NCBI GenBank assembly: GCA_012517355.1
Contig: JAAYVD010000168.1
Location: forward strand, 62,001 to 126,000
Direction: 5' to 3'
Length of the DNA stretch: 64,000 nt
Source of the DNA: Candidatus Rifleibacteriota bacterium
GTDB lineage: Bacteria > Muiribacteriota > Ozemobacteria > Ozemobacterales > Ozemobacteraceae
Shown here: positions 1 through 24,239 of the stretch, in pieces
Position numbering within the stretch: the stretch's first letter is position 1
Layout: the number at the start of each line of letters is the position of its first letter
The notes under the pieces: generated by a model
The model's input: the letters and a program-made list of their open reading frames with translations, nothing else
Databases searched by the model: none
Told to the model about the DNA's origin: nothing
Position numbers and translations under genes: made by a program

Positions 1-696
1 GGAACACCACATGGCGACCAGGGTCAGCAGGAAGAGAATCCCGGCATCGGCCTGGAAGTGCTCGGGGAGCAGGCCGAACCCGTACCCCATATCGAAGACG
101 GCGAGCGACATCAGGACGACGCTGCCCCGCAGCGCAAGCCCGGCCCATGCACGGGCCGGGCTTGGAATGTCCAGGGGTTCGCCTTCTGCGCAAGCGCCGA
201 GCCCGGCAGGGGAAGGGTCCGTTTCGGGAACGTGGCCCGCGGTGGCCTCCTCCCCGGCCGCGACCGGAGCGGAGACCCCTGCGGGAGCCATGGGGGGCAT
301 GCCCACCACCGGAGCGCCGGCGGCCGGCCCGGATGCCGGATCCGAGACTCCCTGGTCCCCCGGGGAAAGGAAGGCCCGCACGATCTGGCCGGGGAGATTC
401 ACCAGGACGAGGAAGATCTCCAGAACGGCCTTCCCCAGGTCGCAGGCCATGTTTCCCGCCGCCGCCGCCACGCCAGGAATCCAGTCAAACGGCCGTTCGG
501 GCGCCAACCCGATGAGATCGAGACCCCAATGAAGGATGACCATGAGCACGAGGCACGCCATCAGGAAGGCGGAGAGGGCTCCGATGATCCCCATGGCGAT
601 GGGAAAGGCGACCGCCAGCGCGATGAGCAGGCCCACGACCACCACCATGATCGTGGAACGGGCCACCTGAAAATGCCGCACCCTGGCCTCGGCCAT
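1..696 (-). CDS. Multi-pass membrane protein of unknown function (C-terminus cut by window edge)
   Basis: The frame stays open from an ATG at 696 to the window edge, 232 codons, with strongly GC-biased third positions and the purine-rich ribosome site GGGGGAAGGG just upstream. Two hydrophobic helices lie at about residues 14-36 and 38-58. They are followed by an amphipathic stretch, a Pro/Ala/Gly-rich hydrophilic linker at about 118-180, and two more hydrophobic segments at about 187-205 and 222 onward. I do not recognise a family. The layout (two helices, hydrophilic middle, two helices) is shared with the membrane protein at 7387-8247, so the two may be distant paralogues; that is inference. 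It is divergent from the alpha-2-macroglobulin gene. Confidence 0.6.
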   Translation of the reverse strand, partial: MAEARVRHFQVARSTIMVVVVGLLIALAVAFPIAMGIIGALSAFLMACLVLMVILHWGLDLIGLAPERPFDWIPGVAAAAGNMACDLGKAVLEIFLVLVNLPGQIVRAFLSPGDQGVSDPASGPAAGAPVVGMPPMAPAGVSAPVAAGEEATAGHVPETDPSPAGLGACAEGEPLDIPSPARAWAGLALRGSVVLMSLAVFDMGYGFGLLPEHFQADAGILFLLTLVAMWCS

Positions 697-5435: not shown

Positions 5436-5789
5436 ATGCCCAGCTTTGAAGTGATCCTGACCACCCACGGACGGGCGGTCGTCGCCGACATCCGCGGGTA
5501 TTTCAACGACGAAGCCGGCCGCCATCTGCAAGAGAGGTTGAAACCCCTGCTGAAGAAAGGGTCCAACCGGATCCTCCTCGACTTCTCGCGGTGCGAGGTC
5601 ATCAACAGCCCGGGCGTGGCCGGCCTGCTCGAAACCGCCGTCGAGGTGATCGAGGACCACCGGGGAATGCTGGTCCTCTGCGGGCTCCAGGAAACCAGCC
5701 AGAACATCCTGCAGATGGCCGGTCTGTTCATCTACGCCACCGCGACCGCCGACCGCACCACCGGCCTGGCCGCCCTCGAGAAGACGTGA
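5436..5789 (+). CDS. STAS-domain protein (anti-sigma factor antagonist type)
   Basis: This 117-residue protein is a single STAS domain. The segment VINSPGVAGLL matches the conserved phospho-acceptor loop region of SpoIIAA/RsbV-like proteins, with Ser before Pro-Gly. It aligns with the second STAS protein in this window (21750-22106) from the first residues onward (MPSFEV against MGEFAV), which supports the start at 5436 rather than the in-frame ATGs or GTG further upstream. Family knowledge: such proteins switch partners with a kinase-type anti-sigma factor and are reactivated by a SpoIIE/RsbU-type phosphatase. Two such phosphatases lie in the window, but no kinase does. The stop codon overlaps the start of the next gene (TGATG), suggesting co-translation with a secreted vWA protein. 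Confidence 0.85.
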   Translation: MPSFEVILTTHGRAVVADIRGYFNDEAGRHLQERLKPLLKKGSNRILLDFSRCEVINSPGVAGLLETAVEVIEDHRGMLVLCGLQETSQNILQMAGLFIYATATADRTTGLAALEKT

Positions 5790-14930: not shown

Positions 14931-17825
14931 GTGATGCGGTTCCTGCGGTGGGCCTTTTTCTGCCTGTGCTTCCTGGTCTTCCCTCTCGTGGTGATCAACC
15001 TCGGGGTGAGGCACGCCTTCGCCCTCCAGTGGGAGGCCTACACCGTACGGGAGGCCGCCCAGGTGACCAGGCTCATGGAAAAAACCCTGCAAAATGGCGT
15101 GCCCGAGCACTTCTATTTCACCTGGCTGAACCGGATGGTGGAACGGACCATCGGCACCCGTGACCCGCTGCCCCGGTTGCTGGCGATGGCCAGCCAGGCG
15201 AAAGCGCGGTTCCCGGACCTGCTCGACCTCTACGTGACCGACGGCAAGGGGAACTGCGCCTGGCCCGAACGCATCCCCCCCCTCACCTCCCGGTACCAGA
15301 TCAGACGCCTGTTCCAGTGTTTCCAGTCCCGCTCCGCCCTGACGGCCGGGCTCGATGACAAGACCAACGTCCGGCTCCTGAGCCATTTCTGGGGAGACAA
15401 ACCCCCGTCCAAGGAGCTGGCCACGCAGAACGCGAACCGGCGGGTGACCCAGATCTTCCCGACCGGCCGGCGCACCTGGTTCTACTGGTACAGTGGGTCG
15501 CGGGTCGGTCTGTTCGCCCACGTCCACCGCCAGGGCGCCCGGCCCTGGTACCCGCTTGCCGTACAGATTGCGCACCTGAACCGGGTCCACCGGCGGCTGG
15601 TGGGCGGCATCACCACGCTGGGAGGAACCCCGCGGGCCCCCCGCCTGTCCCGCGGCGAGGCCCGGCTGGTCACGCTGGCCATCTCCCGCATTGATACCTC
15701 CCCGCGGGCCTGGACGGTGATGGGCGACCGGCTGGTGACGATGCTCCCGCTCGACACCACCTTCCGGTTCTGGACGATGCGCCGCCTCGACCCCACGGTG
15801 CGGGGGGAGCTGTGGAGCCGGCGGCTCGCCCTGGTCTCCGGCCTGGTCCTGCTGCTCACCACCGCCGCCGCTTTCCTGGTGATGGTCCTGGAATGGGAGG
15901 TGCCCATCCCGATCCGCGGCCGGCTGATCGGCCTGTTCGGGATCGCCACCGGCCTGCCCCTGGTGGTGCTGCTGGCGAGCGGGTTCGATTACCTGTCCCA
16001 GACCGAGACCCGGCTGGTCAAGGAAACGCGGGACGCCCTGCAGGAGTCGCTCAAGAGCTTCGACGCCAAGTTTCCCAAGATCCTCAGCGAATACCAGGCC
16101 ATCCTGAACGCTGGCCTCAAGGCCTCCTACCTGCCCTCGGGCGCGTTCGATTTCCAGCAGTTCCTCGGCCGGCTGGTCAGCCGGCGCGCCAGTCTCGGCA
16201 ATGTCCACTCCCCCGCGATGATCTTCCGGGACGGCAAGGTCGTCGAAGGGCCGACCGCCGAACCCGGCAAGCGCAAGCATTTCGACCGGCTGCTCAAGGG
16301 CATGGGGCTGGAATCCCTGCGCGCCTACAACCAGAACATGGGATTCGGGGCCGACACCCTGCAGACCAGGCAGGTCGTCTCGGCGGAAGCCCTGCTCCTC
16401 GAGGGCGAGGATGCGCAAAGCCTCCTGCACGGGTTCATGGGCCGCATCGGGGAGATCACCCGGGTGCAGTTCGCCGGCACCGACCGGTTCATCTACTTCG
16501 ACCTGATCCTGAACCCTCGCGGGGTCGGGGAGGCCATCGTCCTCCTCGTCTGGCCCACCGACGACCTCTACCTCGCCTACCTCCGGCGCAACCTCCTGGC
16601 CCGCCAACGCGACTTGTCCGGCAGCCGGATGTATGCCGTGTCGCTGGATTCGCCGCGCTTCGACATGCCCCCCCGCCTGCCCCGCACCGGCTGGCTGGGC
16701 ACCTTCCTGGACCGGGTGAGGACCCGCAACACCCCCCTCGTCGACCAGGTGGAGATCGACGGCATCCCTCACCTGACCGCCGGGATGCCGGGCAAGGAAC
16801 TGCTGCGCCACGTGCTGATCCAGACCATCCCCTTGACCGGTATCTTCGCCGAGGTCCGACGCCTGCACCGCTCCCTGCTCGTGTTCGGCTTCCTCAGCTT
16901 CGCCCTGTCCATCGCGGTCGCCGTTTCCCTGGCCCGCCAGTTCCTGGCCCCCATCTCCGCGCTGACCGCAGGGGTCCGGGAGATGCGGGAAGGGAAGTTC
17001 CGCCACCGGATCACCGTGTTCGACCGCGACGAGCTGGGCGACCTGTCAGCCGCGTTCAATTCGACGATGGAGAGCCTCGAGCAGTTGTCGGTGGCCAAGA
17101 CCATCCAGGAGCGCCTGTTCCCCCACGAGCCCCTCACCCTGCCGGGCTTCACCATCCACGGCCGCTCGGTGACCGCCTCGGAGCTCGGCGGGGACTACTT
17201 CGACTACTTCCCCCTGGGCCCCGACCGGGCGGTCATCCTGATCGGCGACGTGGCCGGCCATGGCGTGGCCTCTGCCCTGCTGATGGCCATGGCCAAGGCC
17301 ATCGTCACCCAGGAGGCGCGCCGCGACCCCCGCCCGTCCTCGGTGCTGCTCGCGGTCAACCGGATGATCTTCGACAGCCTGCAGAAGCGCAGCATGATGA
17401 CCTTCTTCTACGGACTTCTCGAGGCCGGGCCGGCCACCCTCACCTTCGCCAACGCCGGCCACAACAGCCCCTATCGGTTCACCGCCGACGGAGGGGTCGG
17501 CGAGCTGCCCGCCACCGGCTTCCCCCTCGGCACCCGCCGCAACGCCACCTTCACCGAGGAATCGCTGCAGCTCGGACCGGGCGACGACGTCTGGTTCTAC
17601 ACCGACGGCATCGTGGAGACCCCGAGCCCCGACGGCCCGCCCCTGGGCTACGACGGCACCATCGCCCTGTTCCGGGGGACCCGCGGAGACCCTCCCGAAG
17701 AGCGGATCCGGCAGGTCTACCGGAGCTGCGAGGCCTGGCGGAAGGGCCTGGCCCAGCCCGACGACATGACGGTCATCCTGCTGGCCCGCGAGCCGCCGGC
17801 GACCCGCCCCGGCCCGCCCTCTTGA
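14931..17825 (+). CDS. HAMP-SpoIIE-type (PP2C) sensor phosphatase
   Basis: 964 residues starting at GTG. One N-terminal membrane helix (about 5-25) precedes an extracytoplasmic sensing region. Two further helices lie at about 300-322 and 325-350, and a fourth at about 643-665 leads into a HAMP domain (about 670-720). The C-terminus (about 735-955) is a PP2C-type serine phosphatase with the metal-binding motifs GGDYFDY and GDVAGHG. Family knowledge: RsbU/SpoIIE-type phosphatases dephosphorylate STAS antagonists and so free sigma factors. Two STAS proteins in the window are candidate substrates. The protein at 61611 has the same architecture, including a shared WFYW motif in the sensing region, so the two are paralogues responding to different cues. 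Confidence 0.9.
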   Translation: MMRFLRWAFFCLCFLVFPLVVINLGVRHAFALQWEAYTVREAAQVTRLMEKTLQNGVPEHFYFTWLNRMVERTIGTRDPLPRLLAMASQAKARFPDLLDLYVTDGKGNCAWPERIPPLTSRYQIRRLFQCFQSRSALTAGLDDKTNVRLLSHFWGDKPPSKELATQNANRRVTQIFPTGRRTWFYWYSGSRVGLFAHVHRQGARPWYPLAVQIAHLNRVHRRLVGGITTLGGTPRAPRLSRGEARLVTLAISRIDTSPRAWTVMGDRLVTMLPLDTTFRFWTMRRLDPTVRGELWSRRLALVSGLVLLLTTAAAFLVMVLEWEVPIPIRGRLIGLFGIATGLPLVVLLASGFDYLSQTETRLVKETRDALQESLKSFDAKFPKILSEYQAILNAGLKASYLPSGAFDFQQFLGRLVSRRASLGNVHSPAMIFRDGKVVEGPTAEPGKRKHFDRLLKGMGLESLRAYNQNMGFGADTLQTRQVVSAEALLLEGEDAQSLLHGFMGRIGEITRVQFAGTDRFIYFDLILNPRGVGEAIVLLVWPTDDLYLAYLRRNLLARQRDLSGSRMYAVSLDSPRFDMPPRLPRTGWLGTFLDRVRTRNTPLVDQVEIDGIPHLTAGMPGKELLRHVLIQTIPLTGIFAEVRRLHRSLLVFGFLSFALSIAVAVSLARQFLAPISALTAGVREMREGKFRHRITVFDRDELGDLSAAFNSTMESLEQLSVAKTIQERLFPHEPLTLPGFTIHGRSVTASELGGDYFDYFPLGPDRAVILIGDVAGHGVASALLMAMAKAIVTQEARRDPRPSSVLLAVNRMIFDSLQKRSMMTFFYGLLEAGPATLTFANAGHNSPYRFTADGGVGELPATGFPLGTRRNATFTEESLQLGPGDDVWFYTDGIVETPSPDGPPLGYDGTIALFRGTRGDPPEERIRQVYRSCEAWRKGLAQPDDMTVILLAREPPATRPGPPS

Positions 17826-19998: not shown

Positions 19999-21651
19999 TC
20001 AGGTGCCGGCGCCGGTCTCGGTCAGGAAGAGCAGGAAGCTTTCCTGGGCCTCGACCCGCTCGAAGAACTCCCAGCGGGCCTTTTCGTCCATGGGGCCGCG
20101 ACGCAGCAGGCCGGTGGCCTGGTCGGCCTGGAAGAACGGCACCAGCGGCAGCCGGTTCATGGAGTCCTGGCTGAACAGCATCGGGCAGTTCACGGGCAAG
20201 AGGTCGTTGGAAAAAAGCTTGGGATCGAGATGGGAAGGCTTGGGGCCCCACAGGTCGAGCACCCGCAGGCCATCGGGGGTGCCCTGTTTGACCACCAGGT
20301 GATTGGAACCGAGAAACCGCGACAGGCCGCGGAGCAGGTCGCACAGCCCTTCGACGGCGGCCACGTGGAAGTTGGCGGTCTCCTGGGGATACTCGTCGAG
20401 CAGGTTGAACCCCTCCTGCAGCGAGATGAACGGCTCGGCGAACTCGTCCTCGAGCCCCTCGCGGAAACAGTGGCCCATGGCCAGGGGGAAGATGTCGCCG
20501 AACCCGTAGGGGTCGGGGAGGGTGTCGGCGAGCAGCCGCATCAGCTGCAGGGTGTTGAGCCCGGTCGGGTCGGCGACCGCCCGGAAGCAGGCCCGGTCGG
20601 CGACCCGGTTGCGGCCGCCCTGGGCGAAATAGGCCGCGATGAAGCCGCTGACCAGCAGGTGGCGGACCCGCTCGAAGATGGTGCGCAGCCGGGTGTTGAC
20701 CTCGGCGAGGGGGGACTGGCTGCGCCCGGTCTCGGCGAGCGGTTCGAGCAGCCAGGCGGGGGTTTTCGGCCAGACTTCGAGGAGGCGGCTTTCCAGGTCG
20801 CGCAGGGCGACGGTGGCGGTCTCCTCCTCGGGAGGCGGAGGGGGGATGAGGGCGGCGGCGTCGGGATCGCCCTTCCGGGCCAGTTCCTGGACGATCTCCT
20901 TCACCCGGGCGGCGGTCGCGGGATCGGGGTGCGCCAGGTGGTCGCGGGCCAGGGGAATGACGTCGGCCCCCGGGAGGCCGGCCAGCACTCCGGCGGCCAG
21001 CCGGGCCTGGGCGGGGTCTTCCCCGGCCAGCATGCCCTGCAGGGCGGCCAGCAGGTGCTCCTTCCCGACCTGGTTGAGGAACTGCCGGACCAGGTAGACG
21101 ATCCCGGGGGCGGGGTCGGCCAGGCCACGCAGCAGATGCGGGAGCAAACACCCCTGGAAGACGGCGATGATCGCCTGGAAGGCCTCCTGCCGGACGGTGG
21201 CGGCGGCGTCGCCGAGGTAGGAGAGGAGGATGGGAAGATTGCCCAGATCGGGGTTCCGGCGGAAGATTTCGGCGACCAGGACCCTGGCTTCGGGGCGGGC
21301 GAGGTCGGCCCCGAACTGCTGCACGGTGTAGAGGAGATTGGTCGAGCAGCGCTGCCGGAGGGCCCGCAGGGCATACAGGCGACGCGACTCGTCGGCGCTC
21401 TGCAAGAGGGGGATCAGCGTTTCCGGGGTCGCCTGCGTGGGGAGGCTGGCGAACTCCTGGAGCTTCTTGAGGACCTTCATGGTGAGGACCTGCAGGTCTG
21501 GCTCTGGCTGGGTGCCGAGGAATTCCTGCAGCAGTCCCTGGGCCTCGATCACCACCTCGTTGTGGATGATGGCCAGGGCCCGCTTCTGCAAGGCCCGGTT
21601 CGACTGGGTCAGGGCTTTCCGGAGCTCGTCCAGGGAATTGGTTTTCGACAT
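19999..21651 (-). CDS. HEAT-repeat protein with unknown C-terminal domain
   Basis: 550 residues. Residues about 10-265 form helical repeats of HEAT/PBS-lyase type (for example LIPLLQSADESRRLYALRAL, repeated with a period near 35-40). A Pro/Glu-rich linker at about 270-285 leads to an all-new C-terminal domain (about 290-550) that I do not recognise and in which no catalytic motif is apparent. The start fits a promoter whose -10 ends 6 bases before the ATG. It diverges from the STAS gene at 21750 across only 98 bases, with two face-to-face promoters. A scaffold role in the same signalling system is plausible but inferred. Confidence 0.75.
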   Translation of the reverse strand: MSKTNSLDELRKALTQSNRALQKRALAIIHNEVVIEAQGLLQEFLGTQPEPDLQVLTMKVLKKLQEFASLPTQATPETLIPLLQSADESRRLYALRALRQRCSTNLLYTVQQFGADLARPEARVLVAEIFRRNPDLGNLPILLSYLGDAAATVRQEAFQAIIAVFQGCLLPHLLRGLADPAPGIVYLVRQFLNQVGKEHLLAALQGMLAGEDPAQARLAAGVLAGLPGADVIPLARDHLAHPDPATAARVKEIVQELARKGDPDAAALIPPPPPEEETATVALRDLESRLLEVWPKTPAWLLEPLAETGRSQSPLAEVNTRLRTIFERVRHLLVSGFIAAYFAQGGRNRVADRACFRAVADPTGLNTLQLMRLLADTLPDPYGFGDIFPLAMGHCFREGLEDEFAEPFISLQEGFNLLDEYPQETANFHVAAVEGLCDLLRGLSRFLGSNHLVVKQGTPDGLRVLDLWGPKPSHLDPKLFSNDLLPVNCPMLFSQDSMNRLPLVPFFQADQATGLLRRGPMDEKARWEFFERVEAQESFLLFLTETGAGT

Positions 21652-21657
21652 GAATCC

Positions 21658-21686
21658 ATTCTAGTGGATCGACTGGGGTCGCACAA
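21658..21686 (-). promoter_or_regulatory. Leaderless-type promoter of the HEAT-repeat gene
   Basis: On the minus strand TTGTGC (21686-21681), 17 bases, TAGAAT (21663-21658), then 6 bases and the ATG at 21651. Confidence 0.65.
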
Positions 21687-21714
21687 GGGCGCGGGCCCAT
21701 TTTTCACCGGGCGT

Positions 21715-21743
21715 TTGACATGGTACCGGGGCTTGGCTAGAAT
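21715..21743 (+). promoter_or_regulatory. Consensus leaderless-type promoter of the second STAS gene
   Basis: TTGACA (21715-21720), 17 bases, TAGAAT (21738-21743), then 6 bases and the ATG at 21750. This is the best promoter in the window; transcription should begin at or within a base of the start codon. Confidence 0.75.
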
Positions 21744-21749
21744 GGTCGC

Positions 21750-22106
21750 ATGGGTGAGTTTGCCGTCGTCACCGAGATCCGCGACAACCCGCGGGTGGTC
21801 TGCGTCCGGACCACCGGCTACATCGACGACGCGGCCGGAGAGAAGATCAAGAAGGTCATCCAGTCGTTGATGGTGAAGGGCGAGAAGAACTACCTGTTCA
21901 ACTTCGCCAGCTCCCCCGTCATCAACAGCACCGGCATCTCCTGCCTCCTCGAGATCTGCGAGGAGATCGGGTTCAGCCTGCAGGGGAAGGTGGTCTTCTG
22001 CAGCCTTCCCAAGGCCATCGCCGAGGTGTTCAAGATGATGGGCATCACGACGGTCTACACGGTCTGCGACTCCGAGGAATCGGCGGTTCCCGAGTTCTCC
22101 CGGTGA
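21750..22106 (+). CDS. STAS-domain protein (anti-sigma factor antagonist type)
   Basis: 118 residues, a single STAS domain. SPVINSTGISCLLEIC is the conserved loop and helix, with Ser-Thr-Gly at the phospho-acceptor site as in RsbV-type proteins. It is a paralogue of the STAS protein at 5436 and shares its leaderless-type promoter arrangement. The likely regulators are the SpoIIE-type phosphatases at 14931 and 61611. Neighbouring HEAT-repeat genes on both sides may encode partners. A hairpin terminator follows at once, so the gene is probably monocistronic. Confidence 0.88.
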   Translation: MGEFAVVTEIRDNPRVVCVRTTGYIDDAAGEKIKKVIQSLMVKGEKNYLFNFASSPVINSTGISCLLEICEEIGFSLQGKVVFCSLPKAIAEVFKMMGITTVYTVCDSEESAVPEFSR

Positions 22107-22307: not shown

Positions 22308-24239
22308 GTGAACAACCTGCTGGCCCTGCTGCTCGAGGATCTCGATTCCGAGAACCGGTCCGTCCGGTGCGATGCCGTGCGGCAACTGGCCGAGCAGGAT
22401 CTCGACCCGGCCACGCTGGCACGCATGAACGCGTTGGCGGCAGACCCCCAGCAGGATCCCGAAATCCAGTTCCTGGCCCGCCAGGCGGTGCTGAACACCG
22501 AACGGCGGCGCCGGGCGCCCGCCCAGGCCTTTCCCGCCTTCACCGGCCTGCTCGACCTGGAGAGGAAGCTGGGGGCGCTGAACGACCGGGAGTTCCAGCA
22601 GGCGGTGGGCAACTGTCCCGCCGAATCGGTGCCGGCCCTGATGGAGGTCCTGCGACGGCTGGTGCCGCAGCCGGACCTGCCCCCCGACCGGGCGGCGGTG
22701 GTCCTGGCCGCCTTCCGGCGGTGGGGGAAGCCCGAGGACGGCGACCTCCTGCTGCCCTTCGTGGGCGCCAAGGACCCGGTCCAGGTCATCGAGGCCATCG
22801 GGGCCCTCGAACGGCTGGCCCCCCGCAAGCTGTTCGAGCGGATCGGGGTGCCCCTGGCCTCGCCCTACCCGCACGTGCAGAACCGGGCCCTGCGCACCAT
22901 CCTGCGATTCCACTTCATGAAGGGGGTGGACTACCTGCGGCGGATGTTCGCCTCGGAACACGCCTCGGTGCGCGCCGCCGCGGTGATGCAATGCATGAGC
23001 ATCCCGTTCGGGAAGGTGCAGGAACTGGTCTTCAACGCCCTGGCCGTCGAGGAGGACCCCCGGGTCCTGGCCAGGGCCGCCTACCTGCTGTATCTCAACC
23101 CCAGCGAGAACACCGTCTACTGGCTGATGGACATCGCCGGCACGGCCTCGGCCGCGAAGGGGAAATGGTGCCAGGACTGCATCACCGCCGTCCTCGACTC
23201 GATCCGCCTGTCGGGCATCATGGAGGGGTCGGTCGAGGAGTTCACCGCGCGCATCCGCAAGCAGCTCGAGAGCCGGCAGCGCAACTCCCTGCTGGGCACC
23301 TTCTTCGAGGAGCTGCAGAACAAGGATCCGATGCGACGTTACGAGGCCATCGAAGCCCTGCGGGAACACCACGCCCTGCCCGAGGTGCGCGAAAAGTTCC
23401 AGGCGATGTACCTGGCCGAAACCGACAAGCGCGTGAAGGGTCTGCTGACGACGATCTTCGCCGACAACCCCGACCGGGAGCGCCTGCAGGCCGAGATGGC
23501 CCCCGAGAAGTTCCAGAAGCTGCTGCGCGACGAGCAACTGGCCCTGCTGGGGCAGGTCAAGTCCTGCGAGGAGTTCTCCTTCGTCAAGCCGAGCCTGCAA
23601 CGGTTCTCGCGCATGCGCCTCGACCCCATGGTGGTGGCGGAGGCGGTGCGGCTGCTGGGCCGGTTCGGAGACCCCAAGGATGACCAGCCCTTCCTGATGA
23701 TGGCCCTCAAGAGCGGGGACGGCCTGGTCATGGCCCGGGCCATCGAGGGCCTCGGCCACATGGCCCCCGAGATCCTGATGAAGGAGCTTCCCCGGCTGAT
23801 CCGCGAGCACGACCCGACGGTGCGGGGCGCCGCCCTGCGCACCTTCTTCCGGCTGGACAAGGCGCAGGCCATGAAGGCCCTGCAGGACATGCTGCTGTCG
23901 GAAAGCTCGACGGTCAAGGAACAGTCCCTGGTCTGCCTGGCCCAGCTCAGCTATTCGGCCACGCGCCCGCTGCTGCTGCGGTTCCTCAAGGAGGACCCCA
24001 ACATGGCCCTGGTCCGGAAGGCCGGCATGATCCTGCGCAACAACCCCGACCCCGACGCGGTCAGGAGCATCTACCAGACGATGCGCCTGGTCAGCGGCCC
24101 GCGCAAGACCACCCTGCAGGAGATCCTGCAGGACTGCATCAAGGGCTGTATCGAAGCCGGGCTGGTGAAGGGGACGGTGGCCCAGCACCTGGAAACCCTG
24201 CAACTCGACGCCGCCGCCGGGGACCATCCCACGATCTGA
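22308..24239 (+). CDS. Large HEAT-repeat protein
   Basis: 643 residues from a GTG with GGGAG 5 bases upstream. The whole protein reads as tandem helical pairs of HEAT/PBS-lyase type with conserved Asp/Pro/Arg positions (for example VMARAIEGLGHMAPEILMKE). There is no signal peptide or membrane helix, so it is cytoplasmic. HEAT solenoids bind other proteins, and in several phyla they sit beside STAS and phosphatase genes. It is convergent with the J-domain gene, 20 bases away. No catalytic motif is seen, so the partner is unknown. Confidence 0.75.
   Translation: MNNLLALLLEDLDSENRSVRCDAVRQLAEQDLDPATLARMNALAADPQQDPEIQFLARQAVLNTERRRRAPAQAFPAFTGLLDLERKLGALNDREFQQAVGNCPAESVPALMEVLRRLVPQPDLPPDRAAVVLAAFRRWGKPEDGDLLLPFVGAKDPVQVIEAIGALERLAPRKLFERIGVPLASPYPHVQNRALRTILRFHFMKGVDYLRRMFASEHASVRAAAVMQCMSIPFGKVQELVFNALAVEEDPRVLARAAYLLYLNPSENTVYWLMDIAGTASAAKGKWCQDCITAVLDSIRLSGIMEGSVEEFTARIRKQLESRQRNSLLGTFFEELQNKDPMRRYEAIEALREHHALPEVREKFQAMYLAETDKRVKGLLTTIFADNPDRERLQAEMAPEKFQKLLRDEQLALLGQVKSCEEFSFVKPSLQRFSRMRLDPMVVAEAVRLLGRFGDPKDDQPFLMMALKSGDGLVMARAIEGLGHMAPEILMKELPRLIREHDPTVRGAALRTFFRLDKAQAMKALQDMLLSESSTVKEQSLVCLAQLSYSATRPLLLRFLKEDPNMALVRKAGMILRNNPDPDAVRSIYQTMRLVSGPRKTTLQEILQDCIKGCIEAGLVKGTVAQHLETLQLDAAAGDHPTI

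What the first reader, a model, noticed from the sequence alone, without database searches (positions are those of the whole stretch)
21652..21749. 98-bp divergent region with two back-to-back leaderless promoters
The HEAT-repeat gene and the STAS gene each have a -35/-10 pair with exact 17-base spacing, pointing away from each other, with -35 boxes 28 bases apart (21686 and 21715). The pair is compact enough for one regulator to control both, which fits a shared role.
Basis: partly seen in the sequence, partly recalled or inferred. Interest (0 to 1): 0.5.

Follow-up and report, generated by a model that had tools for sequence, protein, structure and literature searches.

The report
Two back-to-back leaderless gene starts
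Two neighbouring bacterial genes really do start with promoters so close that their messages should begin at the start codon itself, and each promoter has been kept by its own gene family in related species, but nothing suggests that one switch controls both.

Summary
Between a HEAT-repeat gene (HEAT_A, minus, start 21651) and a STAS gene (plus, start 21750) lie TTGACA-17-TAGAAT-6-ATG (STAS) and TTGTGC-17-TAGAAT-6-ATG (HEAT_A). An in-frame TAG inside each -10 box rules out a start further upstream. The organism is a relative of Candidatus Ozemobacter (Riflebacteria). Both promoters recur in its two genus mates, so both are probably real, although the window's HEAT_A -35 box alone is at chance level.

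The interpretation (one regulator, shared role) is not supported. The distance between the genes is 98, 75 and 303 bp in the three genomes. The 8-mers they share lie in or beside the promoter boxes. Two other genera keep the STAS promoter and the STAS-HEAT_B pair without HEAT_A beside them. Several HEAT_A relatives carry their own leaderless promoter, with no STAS probe match in the fetched flank. Each promoter goes with its own gene.

The wider result: in a census of this STAS group in 24 genomes (11 genera), 47 of 80 genes carry such a start, against 15 of 521 sampled genes and 1 of 30 other STAS genes. The label follows orthologous groups. Leaderless genes are a known kind; I found no report of a STAS group that keeps them. 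Transcript starts are inferred.

The parts
21715..21720 (+). -35 box of the STAS promoter, TTGACA
   Evidence: same hexamer in all 4 orthologues
21738..21743 (+). -10 box of the STAS promoter, TAGAAT, 17 bases from the -35 and 6 bases from the ATG; its TAG is an in-frame stop
21750..22106 (+). STAS gene, 118 aa, anti-sigma-factor-antagonist-like, with the N-S-[STQ]-G motif
21658..21663 (-). -10 box of the HEAT_A promoter, TAGAAT, 6 bases from the ATG; its TAG is an in-frame stop
21681..21686 (-). -35 box of the HEAT_A promoter, TTGTGC (3 of 6; TTGACT in both genus mates)
19999..21651 (-). HEAT_A gene, 550 aa: N-terminal HEAT repeats, C-terminal part of unknown family
22308..24239 (+). HEAT_B gene, downstream of STAS in all 5 STAS orthologues including the window
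5436..5789 (+). Second STAS gene of the window with its own leaderless-type promoter (TTGCCA-18-TAGGAT-7-ATG)

Best explanation
The 98-bp region holds two independent housekeeping-type (sigma-70/sigma-A-like) promoters placed so that RNA polymerase starts at, or within a base or two of, the A of each ATG. Both mRNAs would be leaderless and be translated from the 5'-terminal AUG without a Shine-Dalgarno site. The STAS promoter drives a probable STAS-HEAT_B operon and is older than the pair. HEAT_A sits between the upstream acyltransferase-like gene and STAS in this genus only, among the genomes seen, and brought or gained its own leaderless promoter, as several of its relatives have. The back-to-back layout is therefore a neighbourhood accident and not a shared switch. 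Shown: sequence, conservation, gene order, enrichment. Inferred: sigma factor, transcript starts, mode of translation, operon, direction of the gene-order change.
For: Exact layout and in-frame TAG stops. Both promoters in the 2 genus mates G001 and G002. STAS promoter kept in all 5 orthologues including the window (TTGACA, spacer 17-18, gap 6-7), with HEAT_B next in all 5. No HEAT_A in the fetched flank of G010 (the acyltransferase-like gene ends about 90 bases before STAS) or G003. Intergenic lengths 98, 75, 303. HEAT_A relatives with the 5' end present: 7 of 12 strict, 2 of 12 weaker (one is the window), 3 of 12 none. Census of the STAS group: 47 of 80 strict leaderless, 1 further cut off by a contig edge; background 10 of 286 genes in this genome and 5 of 235 in six relatives, 4 of 4... 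inner start codons at chance level; other STAS genes 1 of 30 and 1 of 23 outside the family.
Against: No transcript data exist here. The window's HEAT_A -35 box is at chance level. 33 of 80 STAS genes of the group are not leaderless, so the trait is not universal. The background was counted with a crude gene caller of my own. The Fisher tests treat related genes as independent, which they are not. Supercoiling coupling between the two promoters is not excluded. Insertion of HEAT_A and its loss in other genera cannot be told apart with certainty.
Confidence: 0.85

Rival explanations
1. One regulator binds between the divergent promoters and controls both genes.
For: The promoters are close (28 bases between -35 boxes) and the divergent order is kept in 3 of 3 genus members. 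The sequence CTAGAATG, with the -10 box, is shared by both promoters.
Against: Distance varies (98, 75, 303 bp) and no 8-mer between the -35 boxes is shared with the window. The STAS promoter is the same where HEAT_A is absent. CTAGAATG is the -10 box and its edge; TAGAAT-N6-ATG is found at 13 other places of this genome.
Confidence: 0.06
2. The promoters are real but the genes have short leaders of a few bases, so they are near-leaderless and translation needs no special mode.
For: Gaps of 6-9 bases occur in the 29 promoters listed (6 in 15, 7 in 11, 8 in 2, 9 in 1), and start-site choice varies by a few bases (general knowledge).
Against: The peak at 6-7 puts +1 on or next to the A of ATG, and all 29 starts are ATG. 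The genome-wide peak of distances is at 6-8 (100 listed of 125 sites).
Confidence: 0.12
3. The HEAT_A promoter in the window is decayed, and only the STAS promoter works.
For: The -35 box matches 3 of 6 while both genus mates have TTGACT.
Against: The -10 box, the 17-base spacing and the 6-base gap are intact and the gene is an intact 550-codon frame.
Confidence: 0.15

Closest known systems
Leaderless ('TA-led') genes of bacteria, Zheng et al. 2011, PMC3160421 (abstract and passages read)
   Same: TANNNT about 12 bp upstream of the start codon, read as the -10 box of a leaderless transcript; no Shine-Dalgarno site in use.
   Different: Here the -35 box is also near consensus, and the trait follows orthologous groups of a signalling family. 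That paper reports that cellular-process and signalling categories generally have fewer leaderless genes.
STAS anti-sigma-factor antagonists (SpoIIAA/RsbV type; TIGR00377, TIGR02886)
   Same: Stand-alone STAS domain over Pfam's cut-off; Asn-Ser in the loop invariant in 16 of 16 aligned members.
   Different: Scores far below the NCBIfam cut-offs (30.3 of 53.45 and 35.5 of 114.75 bits); a GY[LIVF]-type group; partner kinase and sigma factor not identified.
Divergent gene pairs with a shared regulatory region (general knowledge, not searched)
   Same: Back-to-back promoters with little space between.
   Different: No conserved spacing or operator; the partner gene is absent beside STAS in other genera.

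Membership tests
Leaderless bacterial gene | -10-like TANNNT about 10-12 bp upstream of the start codon | tested here: met
Leaderless bacterial gene | No upstream in-frame start | tested here: met
   In-frame TAG in each -10 box
Leaderless bacterial gene | More frequent than chance in this genome | tested here: met
   19 against 0 and 15 against 1; 10 of 286 called genes against 0 of 5262 inner start codons
Leaderless bacterial gene | Transcript starts at the first base of the start codon | not testable with these tools
   Needs 5'-end mapping
Divergent pair under one regulator | Conserved sequence or spacing between the promoters | tested here: not met
   98, 75, 303 bp; shared 8-mers lie in or beside the promoter boxes
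Divergent pair under one regulator | Promoters depend on the pair being together | tested here: not met
   STAS promoter kept without HEAT_A in G010 and G003
Divergent pair under one regulator | Co-expression | not testable with these tools
   No expression data
STAS anti-sigma-factor antagonist | STAS domain | tested here: met
   Pfam 44.1 bits, cut-off 22.6
STAS anti-sigma-factor antagonist | Phosphorylatable serine in the conserved loop | tested here: inconclusive
   Ser60 invariant in 16 of 16 rows; its role is recalled from SpoIIAA and was not tested
STAS anti-sigma-factor antagonist | NCBIfam antagonist models over cut-off | tested here: not met
   30.3 of 53.45 and 35.5 of 114.75 bits

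The most novel reading that the evidence does not exclude
In family Ozemobacteraceae several orthologous groups of small STAS signalling proteins, with part of the HEAT_A family, are held under selection to be leaderless. Their synthesis would then depend on the state of the ribosome (for example free 70S or initiation-factor balance), which would feed translation status into a sigma-factor or other partner-switching network.
Probability: 0.15. Interest if true: 0.65.

Novelty: new member of a known kind. Interest (0 to 1): 0.35.

Why it matters
The pair itself is ordinary once looked at across relatives. What may matter is the pattern behind it: in one bacterial family whose sampled loci range from about 27% to 70% G+C, orthologous groups of a signalling protein have kept a near-consensus promoter exactly one leaderless distance from the ATG while other STAS groups have not. 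That gives a natural set for asking whether leaderless starts are kept for a regulatory reason.

Tried and rejected
Shared operator: shared 8-mers and inverted repeats gave only the promoter boxes and their edges.

Trait of all STAS genes: rejected, 1 of 30 Pfam-best STAS loci and 1 of 23 loci outside the family; both single positives may be chance.

My own first count was too high. The first 36 loci gave 29 leaderless, but they were mostly the best hit of each genome. Fetching the 45 hits that had been left out gave 18 leaderless, 26 not, 1 cut off, so the census is 47 of 80. The Fisher values rest on the early count and are not used.

Function of HEAT_A: no Pfam match in its C-terminal half; the predicted structure is poor (mean pLDDT 54.9, two-row alignment) and was not compared with any library; the PDB profile search gave only HEAT/armadillo-type repeat proteins, mostly designed ones.

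Other genes with such starts: Pfam scans of 40 proteins from leaderless-type sites showed mixed functions.

Papers: no paper with 'leaderless' and 'Riflebacteria' or with 'leaderless' and 'STAS domain'; three with 'leaderless' and 'anti-sigma factor antagonist', seen in the listing only and on mycobacteria and Streptomyces; 'Candidatus Ozemobacter' gave none, 'Ozemobacteraceae' three (listing only).

Full report
Where it is. The window is part of contig C71 of a 7.1-Mb genome in 184 contigs. Two genus mates and two more distant relatives are named by a second search: Candidatus Ozemobacteraceae bacterium, Candidatus Ozemobacter sibiricus, bacterium CG2_30_54_10 and a Candidatus Riflebacteria bacterium (4 loci from 147 candidate stretches). 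A first search with HEAT_A alone found none.

The two promoters, their 17-base spacers, the 6-base gaps to both ATGs and the 28 bases between the -35 boxes are as stated. Both ATGs are the first possible starts of their frames, because the TAG of each -10 box is an in-frame stop. The STAS promoter matches 11 of 12 consensus bases and is the only promoter-like site in 5 kb. The HEAT_A -35 box matches only 3 of 6, which is common by chance; it gains support from TTGACT at the same place in both genus mates.

Leaderless starts are a real minority class in this genome. TTGACN-16..18-TANNNT-N6-ATG: 19 sites, reversed control 0. TAGAAT-N6-ATG: 15 against 1. With the gap left free from 0 to 24 there are 125 sites against 19 in the control, and in the 100 listed the gaps peak at 6 to 8. 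In 459,716 bases sampled, 10 of 286 called genes have a strict leaderless promoter, against 0 of 5262 inner start codons; 3 of the 10 are STAS genes. In six relatives it is 5 of 235 genes, with 5 of 3553 inner start codons. The gene caller is a crude one of my own. Counted over every ATG in any frame, the strict layout occurs at 0.13% in this genome, 0.36% in four relatives of middling G+C and 0.88% in two A+T-rich ones.

The pair across relatives. HEAT_A matches were found in 9 of 56 genomes. The divergent pair with STAS and then HEAT_B is present in all 3 members of the genus. The distance between the start codons is 98, 75 and 303 bp; the shared 8-mers lie in or beside the promoter boxes. 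The inverted repeat found in the window region and in G001 is the two -10 boxes facing away from each other (it was not among the repeats listed for G002). In G010 (another genus) the acyltransferase-like gene runs straight into STAS and HEAT_B, about 90 bases ahead of STAS, with no HEAT_A in between; in G003 STAS and HEAT_B follow a different gene. Both have the STAS promoter with TTGACA, spacer 17 or 18 and gap 7 or 6. So the STAS promoter does not need HEAT_A.

HEAT_A relatives. Of the HEAT_A matches, 12 distinct loci have the 5' end of the gene; 7 have a strict leaderless promoter, 2 a weaker one (the window and L016) and 3 none by the program. Among those three, L014 has TTGAAA-17-TACCCT-6-ATG by eye, below the cut. 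In the loci that hold HEAT_A relatives outside the genus and paralogues within it, the STAS probe found nothing in the flank fetched, which is short (up to 1500 bases).

STAS census. One search found 79 STAS genes at E up to 1e-12 in 24 of 24 family genomes; with two weaker ones I examined 81. One is cut off by a contig edge. Of the other 80, 47 have a strict leaderless promoter. On the tree the label changes 7 times against 25.6 in shuffles. Groups: the STAS-HEAT_B group 5 of 5; a group of 21 with 20; a group of 16 with 15; a group of 6 with 5; two single rows; against 0 of 20 in the GYLNDLGA group and 0 in the small remaining groups of 6, 2 and 2. The tree rests on few columns and many forks are unresolved. 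In the 29 promoters listed, the first five -35 bases are TTGAC in 29 of 29, all starts are ATG, and the gap is 6 or 7 in 26. Those 29 passed a cut on promoter quality, so part of this sameness is built in. Other STAS genes: 1 of 30 Pfam-best loci, 1 of 23 loci in other families of the phylum (a 24th match, L162, was already in the first set). A Fisher test of 47 of 80 against 12 of 518 non-STAS background genes gives 9e-37, but related genes are not independent, so this number overstates the case.

The reverse look. A strict pattern search found sites in all 24 family genomes, a few to 16 each, with control counts of 0 to 3. Of 30 loci made from it, 22 have a frame of at least 30 codons. Of these, 7 are STAS by Pfam (L126, L127, L136, L140, L143, L154 and, not scanned but of the same length and place as the STAS hit of G016, L128). 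Others are cupin proteins, a helicase, toxin-like and regulator genes. So leaderless starts are not confined to STAS.

How it most likely works. The housekeeping RNA polymerase starts at the A of each ATG. The mRNAs carry no leader, and 70S ribosomes begin at the terminal AUG, as described for leaderless mRNAs in PMC9031893 (search listing with start of abstract; passages). The STAS protein is likely a partner-switching antagonist: a SpoIIE-type phosphatase gene lies at 14931-17825, and two other STAS loci have a SpoIIE-like gene beside them. This last step is inference; no kinase or sigma factor partner was identified.

What is known. Leaderless genes with TANNNT near position -12 are described in many bacteria in PMC3160421 (abstract and passages), which also says that signalling categories generally have a lower share. 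I therefore file this as a new member of a known kind. The conserved leaderless STAS groups are, as far as these searches go, not in print.

Noticed in passing
L129, L145, L151 (promoter at about 1501): Cupin-domain genes in three genomes of the family start with the same strict leaderless promoter: perhaps a second conserved leaderless group.
   Followed up: no
L146, L148 (promoter at about 1501): A helicase-like gene with weak RadC and DEAD matches has a leaderless-type promoter in two genomes.
   Followed up: no
L100:516-953: A SUI1-family translation initiation factor gene has TAGAATGGTCGCATG, the same 15 bases as the window's STAS start.
   Followed up: no
window 5436-5789: A second STAS gene of the window has its own leaderless-type promoter.
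   Followed up: partly
L006, L058, L210, L213 and 16 further loci: The GYLNDLGA group of STAS genes is never leaderless (0 of 20) and is kept across the family: a ready contrast group.
   Followed up: partly
window 20002-20812: The C-terminal half of HEAT_A matches no Pfam family even at E 10 yet is kept in relatives.
   Followed up: partly
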